From NCBI GenBank assembly GCA_003649445.1, contig QMRV01000077.1:1-8415 (forward strand): DNA of 8,415 nucleotides, read 5' to 3'. The notes beneath the pieces are model-generated. The model saw nothing but the letters and a program-made list of their open reading frames with translations, was not told the origin of the DNA and ran no database searches. Shown in pieces: positions 1 to 8,415 of this stretch (position 1 is the stretch's first letter; each line of letters begins with the position of its first letter). The position numbers and the translations under genes were made by a program. This DNA is from Thermoprotei archaeon. Lineage in GTDB: Archaea > Thermoproteota > Thermoprotei > Thermofilales > B15-G2.

Positions 1-612
1 GTCGATGCAATCACAGACTTTTACTCCAAGGGGGCTGGGGAAGTAGACTTCGTAGAAGCTGATTTTGCCCGAGATTTTCCTTACTTCGAGGACTCGAATA
101 AAGCCCTTTTCAATTAACCTAGACTTCGCTTTAATAAAGTCTTTTTGCCGCGGAAAATGGTTTTCAGTAAAATATTCTACGAGGATCTTGTAGAAGACTT
201 CTTTCTCGAGGCGCGTAAGCCTCTCCCACTTCCTTAAAGCCTGCTCTCGGCTAATTTTCCGCAAGTTCTCCAGCCCTAAGCCTATTCTAGGAGCCCCCTG
301 TATCACAGGAAGCTTCGGTTTCTGCGCTTCATCAGACTCTAGTTCCCTGAGCTTTTCTTCAAGGCGATTAGTTTCAGCGTCCAGTCTCTTCAACTTGTAT
401 TCGATAATGTCGAGTGCTTCGAGTACTGTTAGCTTCGATGAGTATTTTAGTGGAGCATAGCGCTCAACAATCTCAAGTACTTTTCTACGAACCTCTTCTA
501 GCTCTTTCTTTAAGAGCTTGTTTTCCTCTAGGAGGCTTTGATAGAGTTCTTCGAGTTGCTTAGCGTATAGTTTAGCCTGTTCTGCTTCCTCAGTTTTCTT
601 CCGCCAAAACAT
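1..612 (-). CDS. Coiled-coil protein with C-terminal winged-helix-like region (3' partial)
   Basis: The frame is open from an ATG at 612-610 to the window edge: 204 residues with no stop, so the C-terminus is missing. Residues about 5-50 and 70-96 are Glu/Lys/Leu-rich with heptad-like spacing and should form coiled coils. A Pro/Gly-rich linker (about 97-115) follows. Residues about 128-195 read as helix-helix-helix then two strands, beginning RLTRLEKEVFYKILVEYF and continuing through FIKAKSRLIEKGFIRVLEVR to KISFYEVYF, which fits a winged-helix DNA-binding fold. The start lies one base after the stop of the 80-residue gene, with no clear ribosome binding site of its own, so translation is probably coupled in one transcript. 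I do not recognise a named family. A role as a dimeric DNA-binding regulator or as a structural partner of DNA is inferred from architecture only. The coding call is firm; the fold is moderately sure. Confidence 0.85.
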   Translation of the reverse strand, partial: MFWRKKTEEAEQAKLYAKQLEELYQSLLEENKLLKKELEEVRRKVLEIVERYAPLKYSSKLTVLEALDIIEYKLKRLDAETNRLEEKLRELESDEAQKPKLPVIQGAPRIGLGLENLRKISREQALRKWERLTRLEKEVFYKILVEYFTENHFPRQKDFIKAKSRLIEKGFIRVLEVRKISGKISFYEVYFPSPLGVKVCDCID

Positions 613-1037: not shown

Positions 1038-2534
1038 ATGGAGATGGACTTGCCGCTCGTAATGGTATGGCTGTGCTCGCTCGATCTAGGTAAGCTCTTG
1101 AACTTGAAAAGGGCTGTCGAGAAGATACTGACATCAGGTTTAGCAGAAGCCGCTCTCCTTTATGATAGCTCAGGTAAGCCGCATATGAAGCCGGAGTCAG
1201 TAGAGTCTCAAAGAAGCGGCGTGCTTAGGTTGATGAGCAGGGAGGATATGAGGTTGTTCCTTGAAGAGTACAGGAAAAGGTGCCGCTTTGCTAGGCTAAA
1301 GCTTCGGGGGTTTAAAGTGACACTTCCCGAGATAGAGATCAAGAAGACGTTGAACGTAGATGTCTACTTAATGCTTCACAGAACAGGATTCGCTGTACTT
1401 AGCTTTTGGCTCTACCTAGATAGAATTCCCTCATTGGAGAAGCTGATAAAGCTAGAGAATCCCTTCCGCCCCATCTATGTTAGAGGATTGTGGAGCGGGC
1501 TCATAGAGCACCTTAAGATCAATAGAGTCATAAAGGAAGAAAATAGAGAGGTCGAAGCGCTAGGTAAAGGTTTTTTTGTCTTAACAATAGAAAAAATACG
1601 GAACATTTACTGGTCCTTCATATTCTCTAAGCTACAGAACGGTCAATCGCCAAGAAGTCTAGAGGCCAAAGTTAGATACCCTTTCTTGGGCATTTACAGA
1701 GTCGTTGCATTAATAGGTATAGAAGGCCTGTTAGAACATTACGTGAAAGAGCATGAGAAAGTGCTTCATGGAATAATATCGATGGAGGATTTCTGGGACT
1801 CTGTTCGAAAGCCGTGGATCGAAGAGTCTCTAAGTGTGAACCTTGCGTGGCGAGAAGGGTGGGGCGTATACATAGGTAGCGCCGGAGCACTAATGATAAT
1901 CACTAAGGAGGCGATGGAGCTGATCAGAGACTTGCTGAGAGCGAAACTTGAGCACGAAATCCCACATATTGTTTTGGGATGGAGCGAGCGTGGCCCATTT
2001 GCGGCTACACTTGACAGAAAGAAAGTTTCCGAGAAGCTCGTAGAGCGTGTTTGGAAAGATCAGCAGATCTCGATAATCTTAGATCTTTTTGTAGTTGTAG
2101 AGCTTTTATGCCTTCAGAGTATCATGCTAAGGGCATATGAGTACATTTTGAGCGAAAAAATGCCTAAAAGTATAAGGAGGCTCGCCCAAGTTAAGAGGGA
2201 ACTACTGGAGGTTATAGAGGAGGTTCTAAATGTCAGAGTGTGGCAACCTAGAACAGCCGCTGTATGGGTTGAGCACGGCAAGAAGGTCATAGGGATTGAT
2301 GTCCTTTATAGCTCGGTTAAGGAGAAGCTTAGCATTCTAGAGAGCAGACTTAGAACCCTCTACGACCACGCGCTTAACACCTTAATGCTGGCTCTAACAC
2401 TATTCCTAGGCATTCCACAGGTTATAGAGCTTCTACTCCGCTTTGGCATCTCCTCTGTGGTCTGGCTCAGCCTAGTCGTAGTAATCTTCGTAATGATGGT
2501 TATCGCTATCGCATATTACGCAAAAATACTGTAG
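1038..2534 (+). CDS. Membrane-anchored protein with two C-terminal transmembrane helices, unknown function
   Basis: The frame runs from ATG 1038 (ATG 1044 is an equally good leaderless start) to TAG 2532-2534, 498 residues. There is no signal peptide. The first ~440 residues are a mixed soluble part, including a strand-rich stretch about 90-130 (VDVYLMLHRTGFAVLSFWLY). A long helical part follows: about 340-395 (VVVELLCLQSIMLRAYEYIL, then KRELLEVIEEVLNVRVW) and 415-445 (a stalk ending ESRLRTLYDHALN). Two hydrophobic helices close the protein, about 446-468 and 473-494, joined by a very short turn (RFGIS). This order resembles CorA-type channels and Rmd1/DUF155 proteins, but the CorA GMN loop motif is absent, so I do not call it a magnesium channel. 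The gene is divergent from the 80-residue gene and converges on the ATPase gene. A membrane partner for the ATPase is possible but inferred only from proximity. Coding is very sure; function is unknown. Confidence 0.9.
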   Translation: MEMDLPLVMVWLCSLDLGKLLNLKRAVEKILTSGLAEAALLYDSSGKPHMKPESVESQRSGVLRLMSREDMRLFLEEYRKRCRFARLKLRGFKVTLPEIEIKKTLNVDVYLMLHRTGFAVLSFWLYLDRIPSLEKLIKLENPFRPIYVRGLWSGLIEHLKINRVIKEENREVEALGKGFFVLTIEKIRNIYWSFIFSKLQNGQSPRSLEAKVRYPFLGIYRVVALIGIEGLLEHYVKEHEKVLHGIISMEDFWDSVRKPWIEESLSVNLAWREGWGVYIGSAGALMIITKEAMELIRDLLRAKLEHEIPHIVLGWSERGPFAATLDRKKVSEKLVERVWKDQQISIILDLFVVVELLCLQSIMLRAYEYILSEKMPKSIRRLAQVKRELLEVIEEVLNVRVWQPRTAAVWVEHGKKVIGIDVLYSSVKEKLSILESRLRTLYDHALNTLMLALTLFLGIPQVIELLLRFGISSVVWLSLVVVIFVMMVIAIAYYAKIL

Positions 2535-2864: not shown

Positions 2865-5800
2865 CTACTTGTGACTTTGAACTAAGTTGTTTATTTCTTG
2901 GTCTGTTGGTGGTTTTGTTTCTATGTAGTCCCATTTGATTAAGACTGGTTCTGTTTCTGTGAGGTTTGTTGTACGCATTTTTCTTACTATGCTCCATCCT
3001 ACTGGCAGTCTTGTTAGGAAGCGTTTGACTTCACGGTGGTCTAGTCTAGAGTCTCTTGCAAGCATTTCAGTTGTCATTGTTACGTCTGGCTTGTCTCTAG
3101 TCTCAGATACTAGCTTAAAGACCGCTAAGAAGCCGCAGTTTTTCCGGACACCGTCTCCCAGTATTGAGGGGTACTGTGCTATCATTACAAGGTACTGGTT
3201 ATATCCTGCGCTTTCACTAGCTATTCTATCAAAAATATTTTCAGTAATATTAAGCATACCCGCTATTTGTGAACGCTTAATGTCGAAAGCTATTTGATGA
3301 GCTTCCTCAAGTACTATTAGCTCCGGTATACTTGAGGCTCCGTTGAATTTTCTGTAGAGGAAGCAGGCTATAGCTAGTAGTCCTAGCAGGAAGGGTTTAT
3401 GGATGTCTGCTAGTTCTCCTGCCTCAATAACAGTTACACCCTTTTCTTCTAGTAGTTCGCCTATGTCGATGCTTTCTTGGCTGCAGAAAAGTTTCTTGAA
3501 TTTTCCTCTAGTATAGAACTTCAGTCTATCCAATGTCTTCTGATATATGTCTAGTACATCGAATGGTGTGCGCCTATCTCTGCGCAGTTCATCGAGCTCT
3601 CTGCCCACTGCCTCGTATAGTTCTAGTAGAGTAGGCGGCTGTGCTGACGGATCATCGTATAGTCCGTGTGCTTCGTAGAGTTCGTCTAGCTTGCTCCATA
3701 TCAGGGAGTAGCTTCTGGGTCCGAGTCCGTAGGTTACGGAGAACCATAGTGTAGCTATGTCTCTCCATGTCTCGACATCTACTCCTCGCGGAGGCTTGAG
3801 TGGATTAAATTTCAGCGGATAGAATTTATCTGAGTATAGTGTGTAGAAGCGGCAGGGCTTGCAGAGTACTAGTAGTCTTCTCCAGTCCTTTTTCCAGTCG
3901 AGTACAAGTGCTCTCGCACCAATACTGTTTACTAGCCTAGACACGAAGACTAGAGCCGCGTTTGTTTTACCCGACCTAGTTATACCTAAAAACAGCGCGT
4001 GCAGTAGTTCTTTTCGATCTATGCCATATCTTATTGAGATCAGCTGTCCTGTTTCATGGCTTAGTACGTAGCCGAATTCTACGTCGTAGCTTCTCGGAGG
4101 AGGAGTGCGGAACTCCGGTATGTTTTCTACAATATTTTCTAGTCCGGGAGCTTCTAGCCTAGGAGGATGCGTCAGAGAAGCCAGCTCTGTGCAAGTATAG
4201 ATGTTGATGTAGCGGTACGGCTCTAGAGCAAAGCCTCCTTTCCTCAAATCAAAGCTGAATGTTCTAGCACACTGCAGTAGCCTGTAGTCTGCATCAACTA
4301 CTCTGAGAGGATGCGGAATCAGTTTTGTTGGAGCATAGGCTCCTATCAGCAGGGCTTTAGCAGCAAGCACGGTTGTTTCATCAGGTGCCGCTAGTACTGC
4401 TTGGACGTAGAAGCCTCCCTGAGAAACCATTTCGCTGTACCTCTGGCTCTCCAGCACTAGTAGCTGGTAGGCTGTTTTCCTGACTTCATCCGAGCGTATC
4501 CGTGAGTAAGAGTAGTAGATTGAAGGCCATATTCCGGCGACAACTGACTCTGCTTCGCTGTGCGCGAGTCCTCTCGACTCTGCCTCAGATACTACTTCAC
4601 TAGAAGCCTCTGTTTCACTGTACTGCCTAGAGCGAGAAACCGTATCCGAGGACCCCCTAGTGTAGCCTTCAGTAACCATAGTAGAGTCTGTTACCGTCTT
4701 CCCTCTGCTCACGCTAGTAAAGTGGCTGCGGGCTACTGTGTGTGATCGGCTCCATCCCTTTGTCTCCGAGCTACTTGAGGTATGGGATACTGTTGTGCCA
4801 GATGTAGTGGAGACTTGTTTGTAGTCGCTGGAGTACCATGTAACTGAAGGCGCTAGCGGAGTAGTCTTGGTGGCTGGAGGCAGAGACTTCGAGACAAGTA
4901 CTGGTTCTCCGCTTTTAGTGGCTATTTCAATGTTCTTGACATCTGTTTTCAGCTCTTCTCTCCTCTCGTAGCCTCTTTCTCCTCCTTCGTAGTAGCCGTA
5001 GGCGGGAACAGTTATTTTAACGCCTGTAGCCAGAACGTTTCCGCTGAACTTCGGGTTTCCTTTGAATCCTACTCCGCCTGCTTTCTCGTGGTATCCTTCC
5101 CATACGCCGATTGTCCGCTCGCCGCTCTGACTTACTTTATAGCTGTGTGGAACTAAGTACTCTTTTGCTTCTCCTAGCGGAGTAGTTTTTGTTGGAGCTG
5201 GCTTAGAGTATATTTTGCCCTCTACTCTAGTGACTGAAGAAGAGCTTGAAGTAGAGTGTGTTACAGAAGACCCATGCGTCTTCGAGGCGAACACTGATTT
5301 AGTGAAGCTTTCTGTAGTAGAAGACCCTTTTGTAATAGTTGTCGAAGTACTGGTGCTGTGTCCGCGTGAAACTGCTTTACTAGAAGCTTCTGAAACTGTG
5401 TGCGCCTGTCCCTCGCTGACTCCCCTGCTTACGCTTCTACTGCTTTCGCTTCCTTTGCTCTCCGACCCTGCTATTGACTCAGATAGTCCTTTAGTGAGAG
5501 TAAAGCCGACTGGTATTGATAGCCCGAAGCCTATACTAATGTTCTCCTGGTAGTCGCTGTACTTTGAAGCCAGCTCGAGTACTCGGCGAAACATGGCTAC
5601 AAGCTTTACGGGCTCTACTGGCTCAGCTAAAACAATGTAAACGAATTCTCTGTCTAATAGTCCTCGCACAAGCTCCTCGATCATCTCAATTATCTTTACG
5701 CCTACACGAAAGCCTAATTCACGTGGACTAACCGCGTAGCTGTCTCGCGGCTCAGGAACCCCGAGTATAGCTAAACCGTGTTTACTCTGCATTAATCGGA

Positions 5801-6209
5801 GAATTTCGTAGACTTCTTCTCTAGACAAAAAACGGTATTCTGCTTGCCGGTAGCTTCCACTAAGAGAAGCGAGCAGTGCCTCAAAACACTCTTTAGAAAG
5901 CTTTACTGCTTCTCCTTCAGTCAGCGACGTGACTGCAATGCCGTAGCACCATATTAAGCCGAGGCGCCTAGAATTACACGCCAGCAAAACGAGGCGAGCT
6001 TCCGGCAAAACTCTAGTCGAGCCAACAAAATCTCTATGAATCTCTAGAGCAGTCTCTATTTGCGCATATTCACGCGGATTACGACAAAGCCTAACAAGCC
6101 TAACAACACGAAAATACTGAACACCACCATACTCAAGCACATACTCCAAATAATCCAAAACACCGTCGTGTACCTTAACCCTAATATCGACTACTTTCAC
6201 ACAATACAT
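2865..6209 (-). CDS. HerA/VirB4-type ATPase with a large serine-rich insertion
   Basis: This is a P-loop ATPase of the HerA/FtsK/VirB4 group, motors that form hexameric rings and pump DNA or drive secretion. Residue numbers count from an in-frame ATG at 6353; subtract 48 for the ATG at 6209 chosen here. Walker A GITRSGKT is at 790-797, Walker B LIVLEEAH around 1012-1019 with the paired Glu typical of HerA, and the sensor-like MIAQYPSILGDGVRKN has its Gln at 1060. A basic stretch FLTRLPVGWSIVRKMR lies near the C-terminus. The first ~290 residues and about 604-700 look like VirB4/HerA-type accessory domains. Between them is a large insertion: Ser/Thr-rich arm 291-376, core about 394-492, second arm 515-603. 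No membrane helix is evident. The stop is TAG 2867-2865. I chose ATG 6209 because the longer starts (6311, 6353) run into the divergent gene's control region and have no ribosome binding site or promoter. The 6353 start would give 1162 residues, the 6209 start 1114. The ATPase call is firm. Whether it serves conjugation-like transfer, DNA repair or defence cannot be told. No HAS-barrel or NurA-like neighbour is seen, so it is probably not the HerA repair enzyme itself. Confidence 0.93.
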   Translation of the reverse strand: MYCVKVVDIRVKVHDGVLDYLEYVLEYGGVQYFRVVRLVRLCRNPREYAQIETALEIHRDFVGSTRVLPEARLVLLACNSRRLGLIWCYGIAVTSLTEGEAVKLSKECFEALLASLSGSYRQAEYRFLSREEVYEILRLMQSKHGLAILGVPEPRDSYAVSPRELGFRVGVKIIEMIEELVRGLLDREFVYIVLAEPVEPVKLVAMFRRVLELASKYSDYQENISIGFGLSIPVGFTLTKGLSESIAGSESKGSESSRSVSRGVSEGQAHTVSEASSKAVSRGHSTSTSTTITKGSSTTESFTKSVFASKTHGSSVTHSTSSSSSVTRVEGKIYSKPAPTKTTPLGEAKEYLVPHSYKVSQSGERTIGVWEGYHEKAGGVGFKGNPKFSGNVLATGVKITVPAYGYYEGGERGYERREELKTDVKNIEIATKSGEPVLVSKSLPPATKTTPLAPSVTWYSSDYKQVSTTSGTTVSHTSSSSETKGWSRSHTVARSHFTSVSRGKTVTDSTMVTEGYTRGSSDTVSRSRQYSETEASSEVVSEAESRGLAHSEAESVVAGIWPSIYYSYSRIRSDEVRKTAYQLLVLESQRYSEMVSQGGFYVQAVLAAPDETTVLAAKALLIGAYAPTKLIPHPLRVVDADYRLLQCARTFSFDLRKGGFALEPYRYINIYTCTELASLTHPPRLEAPGLENIVENIPEFRTPPPRSYDVEFGYVLSHETGQLISIRYGIDRKELLHALFLGITRSGKTNAALVFVSRLVNSIGARALVLDWKKDWRRLLVLCKPCRFYTLYSDKFYPLKFNPLKPPRGVDVETWRDIATLWFSVTYGLGPRSYSLIWSKLDELYEAHGLYDDPSAQPPTLLELYEAVGRELDELRRDRRTPFDVLDIYQKTLDRLKFYTRGKFKKLFCSQESIDIGELLEEKGVTVIEAGELADIHKPFLLGLLAIACFLYRKFNGASSIPELIVLEEAHQIAFDIKRSQIAGMLNITENIFDRIASESAGYNQYLVMIAQYPSILGDGVRKNCGFLAVFKLVSETRDKPDVTMTTEMLARDSRLDHREVKRFLTRLPVGWSIVRKMRTTNLTETEPVLIKWDYIETKPPTDQEINNLVQSHK
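4854..4865 (-). repeat. Direct repeat, copy 2 (codes TKTTPL)
   Basis: TAGCGGAGTAGT (plus-strand reading) is identical to the copy at 5175-5186, 321 bases (107 codons) away and in frame. On the coding strand both give TKTTPL, here as PATKTTPL at residues 493-500 (numbered from ATG 6353). Similarity continues a few codons beyond the exact match. Confidence 0.6.
5175..5186 (-). repeat. Direct repeat, copy 1 (codes TKTTPL)
   Basis: This is the partner of the repeat at 4854-4865. It encodes PTKTTPL at residues 387-393 (numbered from ATG 6353), at the junction of the first serine-rich arm and the glycine-rich core. Confidence 0.6.
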
Positions 6210-6241
6210 TTTCTTAAAAATACTCAGAGCTTTCTCTTCGA

Positions 6242-6255
6242 GTAAATACTTATTT
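6242..6255 (-). promoter_or_regulatory. Possible TATA element for the ATPase gene
   Basis: The minus strand reads AAATAAGTATTTAC, AT-rich with a purine-rich lead, about 40 bases before ATG 6209. Transcription would start near 6221, leaving a leader of about 12 bases. This supports the 6209 start over the longer frame, but the match to a TATA box is only fair. Confidence 0.35.
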
Positions 6256-6304
6256 CTTTTAGTCTTACTGTAAATGTAGTTAGAATAGTTGGCGGACGGT
6301 AATT

Positions 6305-6322
6305 GTCTCATAAAATTGAGAC
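6305..6322. promoter_or_regulatory. Palindrome in the divergent control region, possible operator
   Basis: GTCTCA-TAAAAT-TGAGAC is a perfect inverted repeat with six-base arms and an AT-rich six-base spacer, ending 21 bases before the ATG of the first paralog. The spacer itself (CATAAAATTG) could act as a TATA-like element for the plus-strand genes. The position and symmetry suit a dimeric regulator controlling one or both divergent transcripts. It could also form a small hairpin in a leader RNA. Confidence 0.5.
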
Positions 6323-6328
6323 TAGATT

Positions 6329-6335
6329 GGGGGGT
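6329..6335 (+). promoter_or_regulatory. Shine-Dalgarno-like site for the first paralog
   Basis: GGGGGGT lies eight bases before ATG 6344 and matches the consensus GGAGGT with one mismatch. It supports translation from 6344 on a leadered transcript. It also argues that these bases are a control region rather than the start of the ATPase gene on the other strand. Confidence 0.5.
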
Positions 6336-6343
6336 AGAAGAAT

Positions 6344-7432
6344 ATGAGAACATATGATGATTTAGAAGGTTTTATTGATTATACGAGTGAGAAAGAGTGG
6401 GAAAATTATATTAGGAGTACTGTAATTCCATTATGGAAGTATTCATGGTTGCTCAAAGAGTTTTTTGAAGAACTGAAAAGAGAATTTGACAACTTACCCT
6501 TAAGTGAAGTAAAGAAAGAAGATTTGCCTTTACTCCTAGGAGGTGTAAAGCTTTTAAGTGAAGAAATATATTCTCGAAATAGTTTAGCTAAATTCTACTG
6601 TAGGTTCTTTGGTTTAAGAATAAAGGATTTAAAATCTTGGATAATCCAGCAACAGTATGGAGAGAATTTAGTAGAGACTACTGTTGAAGTTGTAGAAACA
6701 GGTTTCATTGAATTCGTTAAAGAGGTTTTCGATATTCTCGACTACGCTCTTCAAAAACAGACTTTAGTTCTTGATTATGAAGAACCTCAGCTTAACTATG
6801 AAGAACTTAAAAGAAATCCGGGTAAAGTTAAAGAATTGATTAAAAACTGGTATCAAGCACTATTGAACATTACTCTGAACTATAATTATGGAACATTTTT
6901 CCTTTGTTCTATAAATCAAGTAACCTACAAGTTCATGAAAGCTGCTTACCCCAGAATAGACCAAATTCTCGATTTTCTCAAAAACGAATTCGGCTTAACG
7001 GAACTAGACTGGAATAATCCCATTAACCCAGAAACCCAAACATACAAAGACTATACAATCTACTGCTTTCCTGAATACAATCCTAGAAAACCCGGTAAAT
7101 CCTTTGGAGGAGCAATCTGTAGACTCAATGAAATTATATGGATTAACTTTTCTTACTCAATGAGTACTAAAGAAGCTTTGAGTATGCTTTTCAATAAAGT
7201 ACCAGATCTCAAAAAAGAATATGAGGAAAGAATCATATCAAAACTTCCTGAAAAATATTACTCAACAATCTACTTTAGAGGTATTATAGCTTCAGAAAGT
7301 CTTTCAGGAATAGAGGTAAGCAGAAAAACTCTTATGGAGATGCTAGATGAAAATATGCCATGGCTTTTCACAAATTTAATAAAAATACACAGTGTATATG
7401 AAAATGGTTTCAGATTTACTTGTATTGGGTGA
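6344..7432 (+). CDS. Unknown protein, first of two tandem paralogs
   Basis: ATG 6344 to TGA 7430-7432, 362 residues, preceded by a Shine-Dalgarno-like site. The protein is soluble and largely helical, rich in Glu, Lys, Tyr and Trp, with no signal peptide or membrane helix. Motifs shared with the next gene are YDD near the N-terminus, EKEWENYIR (17-24 region), LLGGV at 64-68, NSLAKFY at 79-85, a NYGTFF stretch near 181-186, KAAYP at 199-203 and LNEIIW at 261-266. The C-terminal ~95 residues differ between the two. No nuclease, protease, kinase or DNA-binding motif is visible. It is divergent from the ATPase gene and five bases upstream of its paralog, so it is the first gene of an operon. AT content is clearly higher than in the ATPase gene and codons favour AGA, GAA and ATA, which suggests separate acquisition. 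Coding is certain; function is unknown. Confidence 0.92.
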   Translation: MRTYDDLEGFIDYTSEKEWENYIRSTVIPLWKYSWLLKEFFEELKREFDNLPLSEVKKEDLPLLLGGVKLLSEEIYSRNSLAKFYCRFFGLRIKDLKSWIIQQQYGENLVETTVEVVETGFIEFVKEVFDILDYALQKQTLVLDYEEPQLNYEELKRNPGKVKELIKNWYQALLNITLNYNYGTFFLCSINQVTYKFMKAAYPRIDQILDFLKNEFGLTELDWNNPINPETQTYKDYTIYCFPEYNPRKPGKSFGGAICRLNEIIWINFSYSMSTKEALSMLFNKVPDLKKEYEERIISKLPEKYYSTIYFRGIIASESLSGIEVSRKTLMEMLDENMPWLFTNLIKIHSVYENGFRFTCIG

Positions 7433-7434
7433 GG
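7427..7434 (+). promoter_or_regulatory. Ribosome binding site (GGGTGAGG) overlapping the stop of the first paralog
   Basis: The site contains the TGA stop of the upstream gene and ends three bases before ATG 7438. It is a strong archaeal-type site and indicates coupled translation of the two paralogs. Confidence 0.65.
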
Positions 7435-7437
7435 AAA

Positions 7438-8415
7438 ATGGAGAGTTATGATGAAATTATAGGATTTAATTATGTTGATGAAAATGAGTGGATAAATTGG
7501 ATTAGAGAAAAGCTTCTGCCTTTATATAAGCAGCTTTCTATTATCTTGAAACTAAGAGAATATTTAGAGAATATTCTTAAAACAAATTTCAAAGACGCTC
7601 TAAGTAAACAATCTATTAAGGAAATACTATTGGGTGGCGTGACAGAAGAAGGAGAATATAGTGCTAATAGTCTCGCTAAACTTTATAAAGATGCACTAGG
7701 AGTCTCAATTAATCCTAAAGAGTGGATTGCTTACTGTAAAGCTGGATTAGATCCTGCAGAAAATGGCATTAAATGCATGTTTGAGGATACATTTTTCCTA
7801 GCATTTGTGAATGAAATAAAGGAATTAGTTGAAAGAGTTCTTTTTAGAGTTGGAATAGAGCCTCAGACAATAGAAGATAGAGAAATTGAAGAAATAGTCG
7901 ATTTTCCTGAAAAACTTTTAGAAATAATTAGAGAGCTTTACAAATCTATAGTAAGTATTTCTGCTAACCATGACTACCACATGTTTTTTATACTAAACAC
8001 ACGCTGTATACCAAGGTTCTTTATCGAGAAAGCCTACCCTAAATTAAGGGAAAATTTTGAAAAAGTCTCAAAAATACTTGAATTAGAAGAAAAATTTGTT
8101 CCAAATGTTAGCGATGAAAAAATTAGAATTAATTATACATTAATTGGACATAAAGAAAACGGCTTAGCCTCTATTCTTTTCGAGCTAAATGAGAAAATAT
8201 GGGGAAAAATACCACAAGTCAAAATATTTGAAAACGTAGGTATAATTGTTCGAGACTTAAAAACCGAATACTACAACAACGCTAAGCAAGCACTCGAAAA
8301 AATAGGATGGAAAAAACCAGATTATATTCGATTAAGTGATCCTCCAGGAACTAAGCATGTCAGAGGATACTCGGGTCCCTGGTACTATACCTATTATATT
8401 GAAGGTATAATGATA
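7438..8415 (+). CDS. Unknown protein, second tandem paralog (3' partial)
   Basis: ATG 7438 opens a frame of 326 codons with no stop before the window end, so the C-terminus is missing. It follows the first paralog by five bases with a strong ribosome binding site. It shares the order and spacing of the family: YDE at 4-6, ENEWINWIR at about 15-23, LLGGV at 64-68 (the same residue numbers as in the first copy), NSLAKLY at 77-83, DYHMFF near 179-184, KAYP at 188-191 and LNEKIW at 240-245. Outside these blocks the copies have diverged strongly, so the duplication is old or the pair was inherited together. The visible C-terminal part (about 250-326) has no counterpart I can align, ending in an aromatic stretch (GYSGPWYYTYYIEG). 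There is no membrane helix and no recognised catalytic motif. AT-rich like its partner. It may act with the first copy as a heteromer (inference). Confidence 0.9.
   Translation, partial: MESYDEIIGFNYVDENEWINWIREKLLPLYKQLSIILKLREYLENILKTNFKDALSKQSIKEILLGGVTEEGEYSANSLAKLYKDALGVSINPKEWIAYCKAGLDPAENGIKCMFEDTFFLAFVNEIKELVERVLFRVGIEPQTIEDREIEEIVDFPEKLLEIIRELYKSIVSISANHDYHMFFILNTRCIPRFFIEKAYPKLRENFEKVSKILELEEKFVPNVSDEKIRINYTLIGHKENGLASILFELNEKIWGKIPQVKIFENVGIIVRDLKTEYYNNAKQALEKIGWKKPDYIRLSDPPGTKHVRGYSGPWYYTYYIEGIMI

What the first reader, a model, noticed from the sequence alone, without database searches (positions are those of the whole stretch)
4545..5483. Mirror-like Ser-rich arm / core / Ser-rich arm insertion in a HerA/VirB4-type ATPase
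Two arms of nearly equal length (86 and 89 residues), each very rich in Ser and Thr, flank a roughly 100-residue Gly/Tyr-rich core, with TKTTPL at both edges of the core. The outer ends of both arms share Glu/Arg/Ser units (SESKGSESS, SEAESRG) and the inner ends share runs of Ser with Thr (THSTSSSSS, SHTSSSSE). This pseudo-symmetry fits an antiparallel stalk carrying a small tip domain away from the motor ring, perhaps to reach a membrane, a pore or a substrate. Ser-rich stretches in related ATPases are known. The core and its bracketing repeat are what I do not recognise.
Basis: partly seen in the sequence, partly recalled or inferred. Interest (0 to 1): 0.7.

Follow-up and report, generated by a model that had tools for sequence, protein, structure and literature searches.

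The report
Giant Ser-rich hairpin on motor protein
A motor protein of the DNA-pump kind, probably from an archaeon, carries two very long serine-rich stretches that look like the two matched legs of one giant hairpin, a feature shared with bacterial relatives and sometimes encoded near pilus genes; it may be a stalk or tube through which the motor works.

Summary
The ORF at 2865-6353(-), probably starting at 6209, is a HerA/DUF87-type ATPase related to NCBIfam 'serine-rich protein' NF033849. In both arms every second residue is Ser/Thr/Gly/Ala, which points to long beta-strands, not disordered linkers. In 130 relatives the arms are nearly equal (42 representatives: 40 within 10% asymmetry, median 1.2%; arm 1 from 91 to 358 residues) although the segmentation model has no symmetry term; inserts rotated as a control were followed in 205 of 210 trials. 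The small face keeps one phase from both ends in 130 of 130. So the arms most likely form one antiparallel beta-hairpin. Here it bears a ~137-residue tip domain, recognisable in three relatives; 35 of 42 representatives have a tip of 23 residues or fewer. Type IV filament (Tad-like) genes lie beside the gene in two bacterial plasmids, 16-21 kb away in a third, and about 11 kb upstream on one archaeal contig.

The parts
2865..6209 (-). Ser-rich-arm HerA/DUF87-type ATPase gene, likely start Met49 (6209); the ORF as listed opens at 6353
   Evidence: ORF; relatives begin near the position of Met49; MYCVKVV at 6209; DUF87 24.1 bits against cut-off 23.2; NF033849 E=1.4e-163
5499..6209 (-). N-terminal region before the hairpin (residues 49-285)
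   Evidence: conserved with relatives; coordinates
5226..5498 (-). arm 1, residues 286-376, ascending strand of the hairpin
   Evidence: alternation, S/T/G/A 96% on one face against 30% on the other; segmentation
4815..5225 (-). tip domain ('core'), residues 377-513, no known family
   Evidence: no Pfam hit here, best PDB sequence hit E 0.38; similar cores in P0005, P0007, L022, 0 of 500 shuffles in each of five pairs compared (the stretches include some arm)
5175..5192 (-). first TKTTPL bracket
4854..4871 (-). second TKTTPL bracket
4533..4814 (-). arm 2, residues 514-607, descending strand of the hairpin
   Evidence: alternation, 89% against 21%; segmentation
4089..4532 (-). conserved region between hairpin and motor (residues 608-755)
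2868..4088 (-). HerA/DUF87-type motor domain (residues 756-1162)
3963..3986 (-). Walker A, GITRSGKT (residue 790)
   Evidence: motif name recalled
3300..3320 (-). Walker B, LIVLEEA (residue 1012)
   Evidence: motif name recalled
1..612 (-). coiled-coil-like protein (cut by the window end; winged-helix C terminus is my reading); a relative also lies downstream of the armed ATPase in L001 and L002
   Evidence: BLASTP E=9e-13 to the 342-aa protein of L001

Best explanation
One giant antiparallel beta-hairpin is inserted in the N-terminal half of a HerA/DUF87 (FtsK-HerA superfamily) motor. Each arm is a long strand with one face of Ser/Gly/Thr/Ala and one mixed face, and the two pair from base to tip. 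Shown by sequence: alternation, near-equal lengths, locked phase, fixed place in the protein. Inferred: the motor works as a hexamer like its relatives, so six hairpins (12 strands) come together as a long tube or stalk, with the small uncharged face turned to a narrow lumen or packed core and the mixed face to solvent. Inferred further: it serves a type IV filament (Tad-like) machine carried by mobile elements, and guides the substrate, most likely DNA, between motor and envelope. My estimates: paired beta-hairpin about 0.9; hexameric tube or closed barrel about 0.45; partner of a type IV filament machine about 0.7 (lowered from 0.75 on checking: the archaeal filament genes are 11 kb off, with genes on both strands between); DNA as cargo about 0.4 (two of three plasmids are typed non-mobilizable).
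For: Period-2 alternation in both arms; the phase counted from each end is the same in 130 of 130 relatives and the inner 40 residues of each arm agree with its base (P0050's tip set by hand there). Small face pooled: S 51, G 29, T 9, N 6, A 3%. Near-equal arms with no symmetry term: 40 of 42 representatives within 10%, median 1.2%, median absolute difference 4 residues. Trained on 8 representatives of the window's own group, the model gives 33 of the 34 others within 10% and 34 of 34 within 20%; rotated inserts: 205 of 210 followed, 0 called central. Independent contrasts r 0.967 without P0050. Context: Tad-type genes next to the gene in pB6464 and pRUMAL01, 16-21 kb away on the other strand in the Pontibacillus plasmid, and PF00437, PF00482 and small N-terminal-TM proteins upstream on the contig of L001. 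The polytopic partner protein has matches, some partial, on six contigs of one MAG. An annotated ssb gene is near in all three plasmids. Precedent: PAPI-1, where a type IV pilus is essential for DNA transfer alongside few T4SS homologues, VirB4 among them (PMC12857230, passages only).
Against: No structure could be predicted. Equal-height composition agrees only weakly. No pilus gene or relaxase was recognised in the window (six ORFs), and its genome is not held. The filament context rests on three plasmids and one archaeal contig, where the filament genes end about 11 kb before the ATPase with genes on both strands between; the contigs of L002 and L003 show no PF00482 match. PLSDB types pB6464 and the Pontibacillus plasmid as non-mobilizable, pRUMAL01 as mobilizable. 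Motor-domain matches to padloc are to HerA models.
Confidence: 0.48

Rival explanations
1. The hairpin is real but each subunit's hairpin stays separate, as a stalk that presents the tip domain; no tube forms.
For: Equal arms and phase lock need only pairing within one chain; the window and six other representatives of 42 have a tip of 54 residues or more, which suits a presenting stalk.
Against: A lone two-stranded ribbon of 90-360 residues would expose both faces, yet one face is almost free of large or charged residues, which suggests that it is enclosed. Inference.
Confidence: 0.25
2. The arms pair and then stack face to face by their Ser/Gly faces, giving a silk-like bundle or a plug, not a hollow tube.
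For: The small face (S/G/T/N/A) would suit tight sheet packing as well as a lumen.
Against: No direct test; a ring-shaped motor favours a ring of hairpins. Inference.
Confidence: 0.15
3. The arms are low-complexity disordered linkers of no fixed pairing.
For: High Ser content; length varies between relatives.
Against: Alternation, near-equal arms and locked phase at both ends are not expected of linkers.
Confidence: 0.04
4. The protein is a HerA-type motor of an antiphage defence system, and the arms serve that role.
For: Motor-domain matches to seven padloc HerA models, best E=4.3e-8, and for P0043 to DndH and mads_8 models; the window's 332-aa neighbour weakly matches a type IIG restriction model (13.4 bits, E=0.003); HerA chains among the PDB matches (their defence role is recalled); two distant plasmid relatives, one with csm6 and DUF2357 genes nearby, show short alternating runs.
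Against: The padloc matches cover only about 80-130 residues of the motor domain; filament genes, not effectors, recur near the armed relatives examined.
Confidence: 0.1

Closest known systems
NCBIfam NF033849 ser_rich_anae_1 ('serine-rich protein')
   Same: E=1.4e-163 with two matched stretches; its members on pB6464 and pRUMAL01 have the same two-arm layout
   Different: 546 bits against a cut-off of 650; the name and description seen say nothing of a hairpin or of filament genes
HerA / DUF87 motors (FtsK-HerA superfamily)
   Same: DUF87 over its gathering score; Walker A and B conserved; HerA-type chains among the PDB profile hits
   Different: Those PDB chains have 562-696 residues; none is known to me to carry such an insertion
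CedD, DNA-import ATPase of the Sulfolobales Ced system
   Same: 47.8 bits to NF053655, E=8.4e-13; a HerA/VirB4-like ATPase needed for DNA import in a system with pili (PMC11868833, passages only)
   Different: Far below the cut-off of 600; CedD has a TM domain, the window protein's highest 19-residue hydropathy is 1.72; a word search of that paper found no 'serine' or 'hairpin'
PAPI-1 transfer system (type IV pilus with VirB4- and VirD4-like ATPases)
   Same: Precedent for a type IV pilus acting in DNA transfer with FtsK-HerA family ATPases (PMC12857230, passages only)
   Different: Sequence relation to the armed ATPase was not tested
Beta-barrel pore-forming proteins (recalled)
   Same: Works-like only: paired hairpins from ring subunits making a polar-lined tube
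   Different: No sequence relation sought; there the ring is not an ATPase and the hairpins are shorter (recalled)

Membership tests
HerA/DUF87 motor (FtsK-HerA superfamily) | DUF87 profile above the curated cut-off | tested here: met
   24.1 against 23.2 bits
HerA/DUF87 motor (FtsK-HerA superfamily) | conserved Walker A and Walker B | tested here: met
   GITRSGKT and LIVLEEA; G795, K796, D819 invariant and E1016, E1017 nearly invariant in the alignments
HerA/DUF87 motor (FtsK-HerA superfamily) | hexameric ring that pumps DNA | not testable with these tools
   structure prediction unavailable
NF033849 ser_rich_anae_1 | score above the curated cut-off of 650 | tested here: not met
   546 bits; two plasmid proteins are over it
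NF033849 ser_rich_anae_1 | two Ser-rich arms between N-terminal region and motor (my description, not the curators') | tested here: met
VirB4 of type IV secretion | match to a VirB4 Pfam family | tested here: not met
   only DUF87 at E up to 0.1; relatives P0002 and P0003 carry a precomputed PF19044, by recall a TraG-type P-loop family
VirB4 of type IV secretion | neighbouring VirB6, VirD4 or relaxase genes | tested here: inconclusive
   none recognised by Pfam in six ORFs of the window, which is only 8.4 kb
CedD | score above the NF053655 cut-off of 600 | tested here: not met
   47.8 bits
Component of a type IV filament (Tad-like) machine | encoded with secretion ATPase, T2SSF platform and pilins | tested here: inconclusive
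   adjacent in 2 plasmid relatives, 16-21 kb away in a third, about 11 kb upstream on 1 archaeal contig; not seen in the window

The most novel reading that the evidence does not exclude
A HerA-type DNA pump that builds its own conduit: twelve paired strands from six subunits form a Ser/Gly-lined beta-barrel tube some 25 to 100 nm long (length set by arm length and tuned between species), coupled to a Tad-like type IV filament machine of mobile elements in archaea and bacteria: a transfer apparatus without the usual type IV secretion channel.
Probability: 0.25. Interest if true: 0.92.

Novelty: new variant of a known kind. Interest (0 to 1): 0.72.

Why it matters
If right, a large family now labelled only 'serine-rich protein' has a well-defined and extreme architecture: the longest paired beta-hairpin predicted from sequence that I know of (recall), with arms kept nearly equal over a fourfold range of length. 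It would give a testable model of how a cytoplasmic DNA-pump motor meets a filament machine, and a molecular-ruler question (why does arm length vary?) that a few structures could answer.

Tried and rejected
Disordered linkers, recent DNA repeats and beta-solenoids were considered. Linkers fail on phase and length; recent DNA repeats on mixed Ser codon families and the near absence of tandem arrays. Solenoids would need turns; turns that keep the phase are not excluded by my tests, which compare only the outer and inner 40 residues of each arm. In the coarser scan several relatives show arms broken into two runs of equal phase.

First tip finder (alternation only): 35 of 42 within 10%, 40 of 42 within 20%, Pearson 0.41 and Spearman 0.66 on all 42; P0027 and P0040 failed. 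A composition-only tip finder put the tip within 0.4-0.6 of the insert in 38 of 42, but arm-length correlation was only 0.29 (Spearman 0.51). An earlier regex-anchored segmentation missed anchors in 36 of 134 and misplaced others; discarded. Leaving rows out after seeing the result is post hoc; the untouched counts are given. A membrane-inserting tip was considered: the tip is Gly- and hydrophobic-enriched, but the finder selects for that, so it is no evidence.

Searches that led nowhere: the window's genome is not held; a single-sequence scan of genome contigs and four scans of viral contigs found no relative; phage records none; the core matched nothing convincing in PDB sequences. Four of the 12 PDB profile hits lie on the Ser-rich part and look like chance. 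Caps: searches scored only about 8000 candidates each, and 120 of the 301 proteins were listed. Of 11 plasmid records, 9 coding sequences were examined for arms. Of 134 proteins 4 (P0008, P0051, P0075, P0114) lacked an anchor and were left out. Nine paper searches listed nothing that by title or abstract start describes this hairpin; only passages of five papers were read.

Full report
What the gene is. The finding lies in an ORF on the minus strand, 2865-6353, 1162 codons. Relatives start at about Met49, so the gene probably starts at 6209. Pfam finds DUF87 just over its gathering score. NCBIfam finds 'serine-rich protein' NF033849, E=1.4e-163 but below its cut-off (546 against 650 bits), and weakly CedD and HerA. 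A profile from 34 sequences finds HerA-type chains in the PDB by the motor domain only. Walker A and B are present. The source organism is not told; the closest named relatives are archaeal MAGs, so I take it as probably archaeal.

Relatives. A protein search gave ten relatives beside the window's own entry, at 23-63% identity in their best local alignment, and a second search two more. A search with the Alkaliphilus protein gave 301, of which 120 were listed. An alignment scan of genome contigs gave three loci: two of a Thermoprotei MAG and one of a Methanomethylicota MAG. In 398 genomes drawn from the phylum of G001, 4 had a match at E up to 1e-20, two of them the genomes already known.

The arms alternate. 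In both arms, not in the core, the class S/T/G/A shows positive correlation at every even lag and negative at every odd lag from 1 to 12, |z| 2.4 to 5.0; Ser alone shows it weakly. In the window the running phase is the same from residue 271 to about 376 and from about 512 to 607. Over 42 representatives the small face is S 51, G 29, T 9, N 6, A 3%, the other face a broad mix led by T, E, V, Q; in the eight of the window's group E and R lead it. In 130 of 130 proteins the phase counted from each end is the same, and the inner 40 residues of each arm agree with its base (P0050's tip was set by hand there). These proteins are related, so the 130 are not independent trials.

The arms are nearly equal. 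I fixed the ends with profile matches to the flanking conserved regions in 130 of 134 proteins and let a three-segment model, with no preference for the middle, place the tip. Asymmetry is the difference of the arms over their sum. In 42 representatives (under 80% identity in the motor domain) 40 are within 10% and 41 within 20%, median 1.2%; of all 130, 127 and 129. The median absolute difference is 4 residues, arm 2 being longer by a median of 3. Examples: 91/94 in the window, 137/138, 269/271, 121/121, 358/361. A uniform tip position would put one in ten within 10%. Two controls: when inserts were rotated so that the tip lay off centre, the model followed it in 205 of 210 trials and never called the middle; and a model trained on the 8 representatives of the window's group gave 33 of the 34 others within 10% and all 34 within 20%. 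Those 34 are mostly unnamed metagenome proteins; named ones are from Alkaliphilus and Ruminococcus plasmids and one MAG labelled Woesearchaeota. Independent contrasts on a motor-domain tree give r=0.967 without P0050 and -0.217 with its wrong segmentation. Near-equal length plus locked phase is what an antiparallel pair of strands, in register from base to tip, would require.

The tip. In 35 of 42 representatives the tip is 10-23 residues (10 is the model's minimum), in 7 it is 54-165. The window, P0005, P0007 and L022 have similar larger tips (five of six pairs compared, 0 of 500 shuffles as good in each; the stretches include some arm), flanked in the window and P0007 by P-x-T-x-T-x-P-like brackets. 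It has no Pfam match and no convincing PDB sequence match.

Arms or none. Of nine plasmid relatives examined, two have two long runs (L004, L005); L025 has one 169-residue run in which I read a central tip by eye; two have shorter runs (L026: 42; L027: 53 and 40); four have no arm-like run, only isolated runs of at most 27 residues or none (L006, L007, L028, L029).

Neighbourhood. In Alkaliphilus pB6464 and Ruminococcus albus pRUMAL01 the gene is followed by a CpaB-like protein (RcpC, 25.8 and 18.5 bits, both below the cut-off of 28.8), a ParA/CpaE-like ATPase, a CpaF-type ATPase, two T2SSF proteins, a small pilin or pilin-like protein and an A24 peptidase, in the same order. In the Pontibacillus plasmid a similar cluster lies 16-21 kb away on the other strand. 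On the archaeal contig of L001 a secretion ATPase (PF00437) and a double T2SSF protein (PF00482) end at 7058, then come about 4.6 kb with genes on both strands, then small proteins with an N-terminal hydrophobic segment from 11630, a polytopic protein and the armed ATPase at 18040. Seven genes from that last run, the polytopic one included, have counterparts in L003 and six in L002. The polytopic protein has matches on six contigs of that MAG, some partial, which suggests mobile elements. PLSDB types pRUMAL01 as mobilizable and the other two plasmids as non-mobilizable. The window itself shows none of the filament genes; it shares the downstream coiled-coil-like protein with L001.

How it most likely works. 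Shown by sequence: two matched alternating stretches at a fixed place in a HerA-type motor. Inferred: a hexamer brings six hairpins together, and the small uncharged face lines a narrow lumen or packs inside while the mixed face meets solvent. At 0.27-0.33 nm per residue (textbook values) arms of 91 to 358 residues would give about 25 to 118 nm. The filament neighbours suggest that the motor serves a Tad-like machine; a precedent for a type IV pilus in DNA transfer with VirB4-type ATPases is PAPI-1. DNA as cargo is a guess from the motor family, the mobile setting and nearby ssb genes, which large plasmids may carry for replication anyway.

Limits. No structure or oligomer was predicted. The context counts are small, and MAG contigs can be misbinned. 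Nine paper searches listed nothing that describes this hairpin, in an open-licence library only, judged by titles and abstract starts.

Noticed in passing
window 6344-7432 and 7420-8415 (+): Two adjacent paralogous proteins of unknown function (30% identical over 214 residues) in a more AT-rich stretch (GC about 0.32), divergent from the ATPase; only weak family matches.
   Followed up: partly
window 1038-2534 (+): 498-aa protein with hydrophobic segments near residues 346, 449 and 474 and no family match.
   Followed up: partly
L001:19316-20626, L003:11125-12327: A protein with a TFIIB-type zinc ribbon is encoded downstream of the armed ATPase in two archaeal loci (45% identical; PF08271 in L001), perhaps an element-borne transcription factor.
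   Followed up: partly
L026:4777-7764 and L027:4612-7755: Distant relatives on Photobacterium and Acinetobacter plasmids show short alternating Ser/Gly/Thr runs (42; 53 and 40 residues), perhaps short versions of the hairpin in another system.
   Followed up: no
L002:9001-12396: The match in one of the two Thermoprotei loci spans an in-frame TAG, so that copy may be broken or misassembled.
   Followed up: no
P0009 (protein): Glycine recurs every 6 residues in the arms (correlation 0.31-0.41 at lags 6, 12, 18, 24), more sharply than in the seven others compared there.
   Followed up: no
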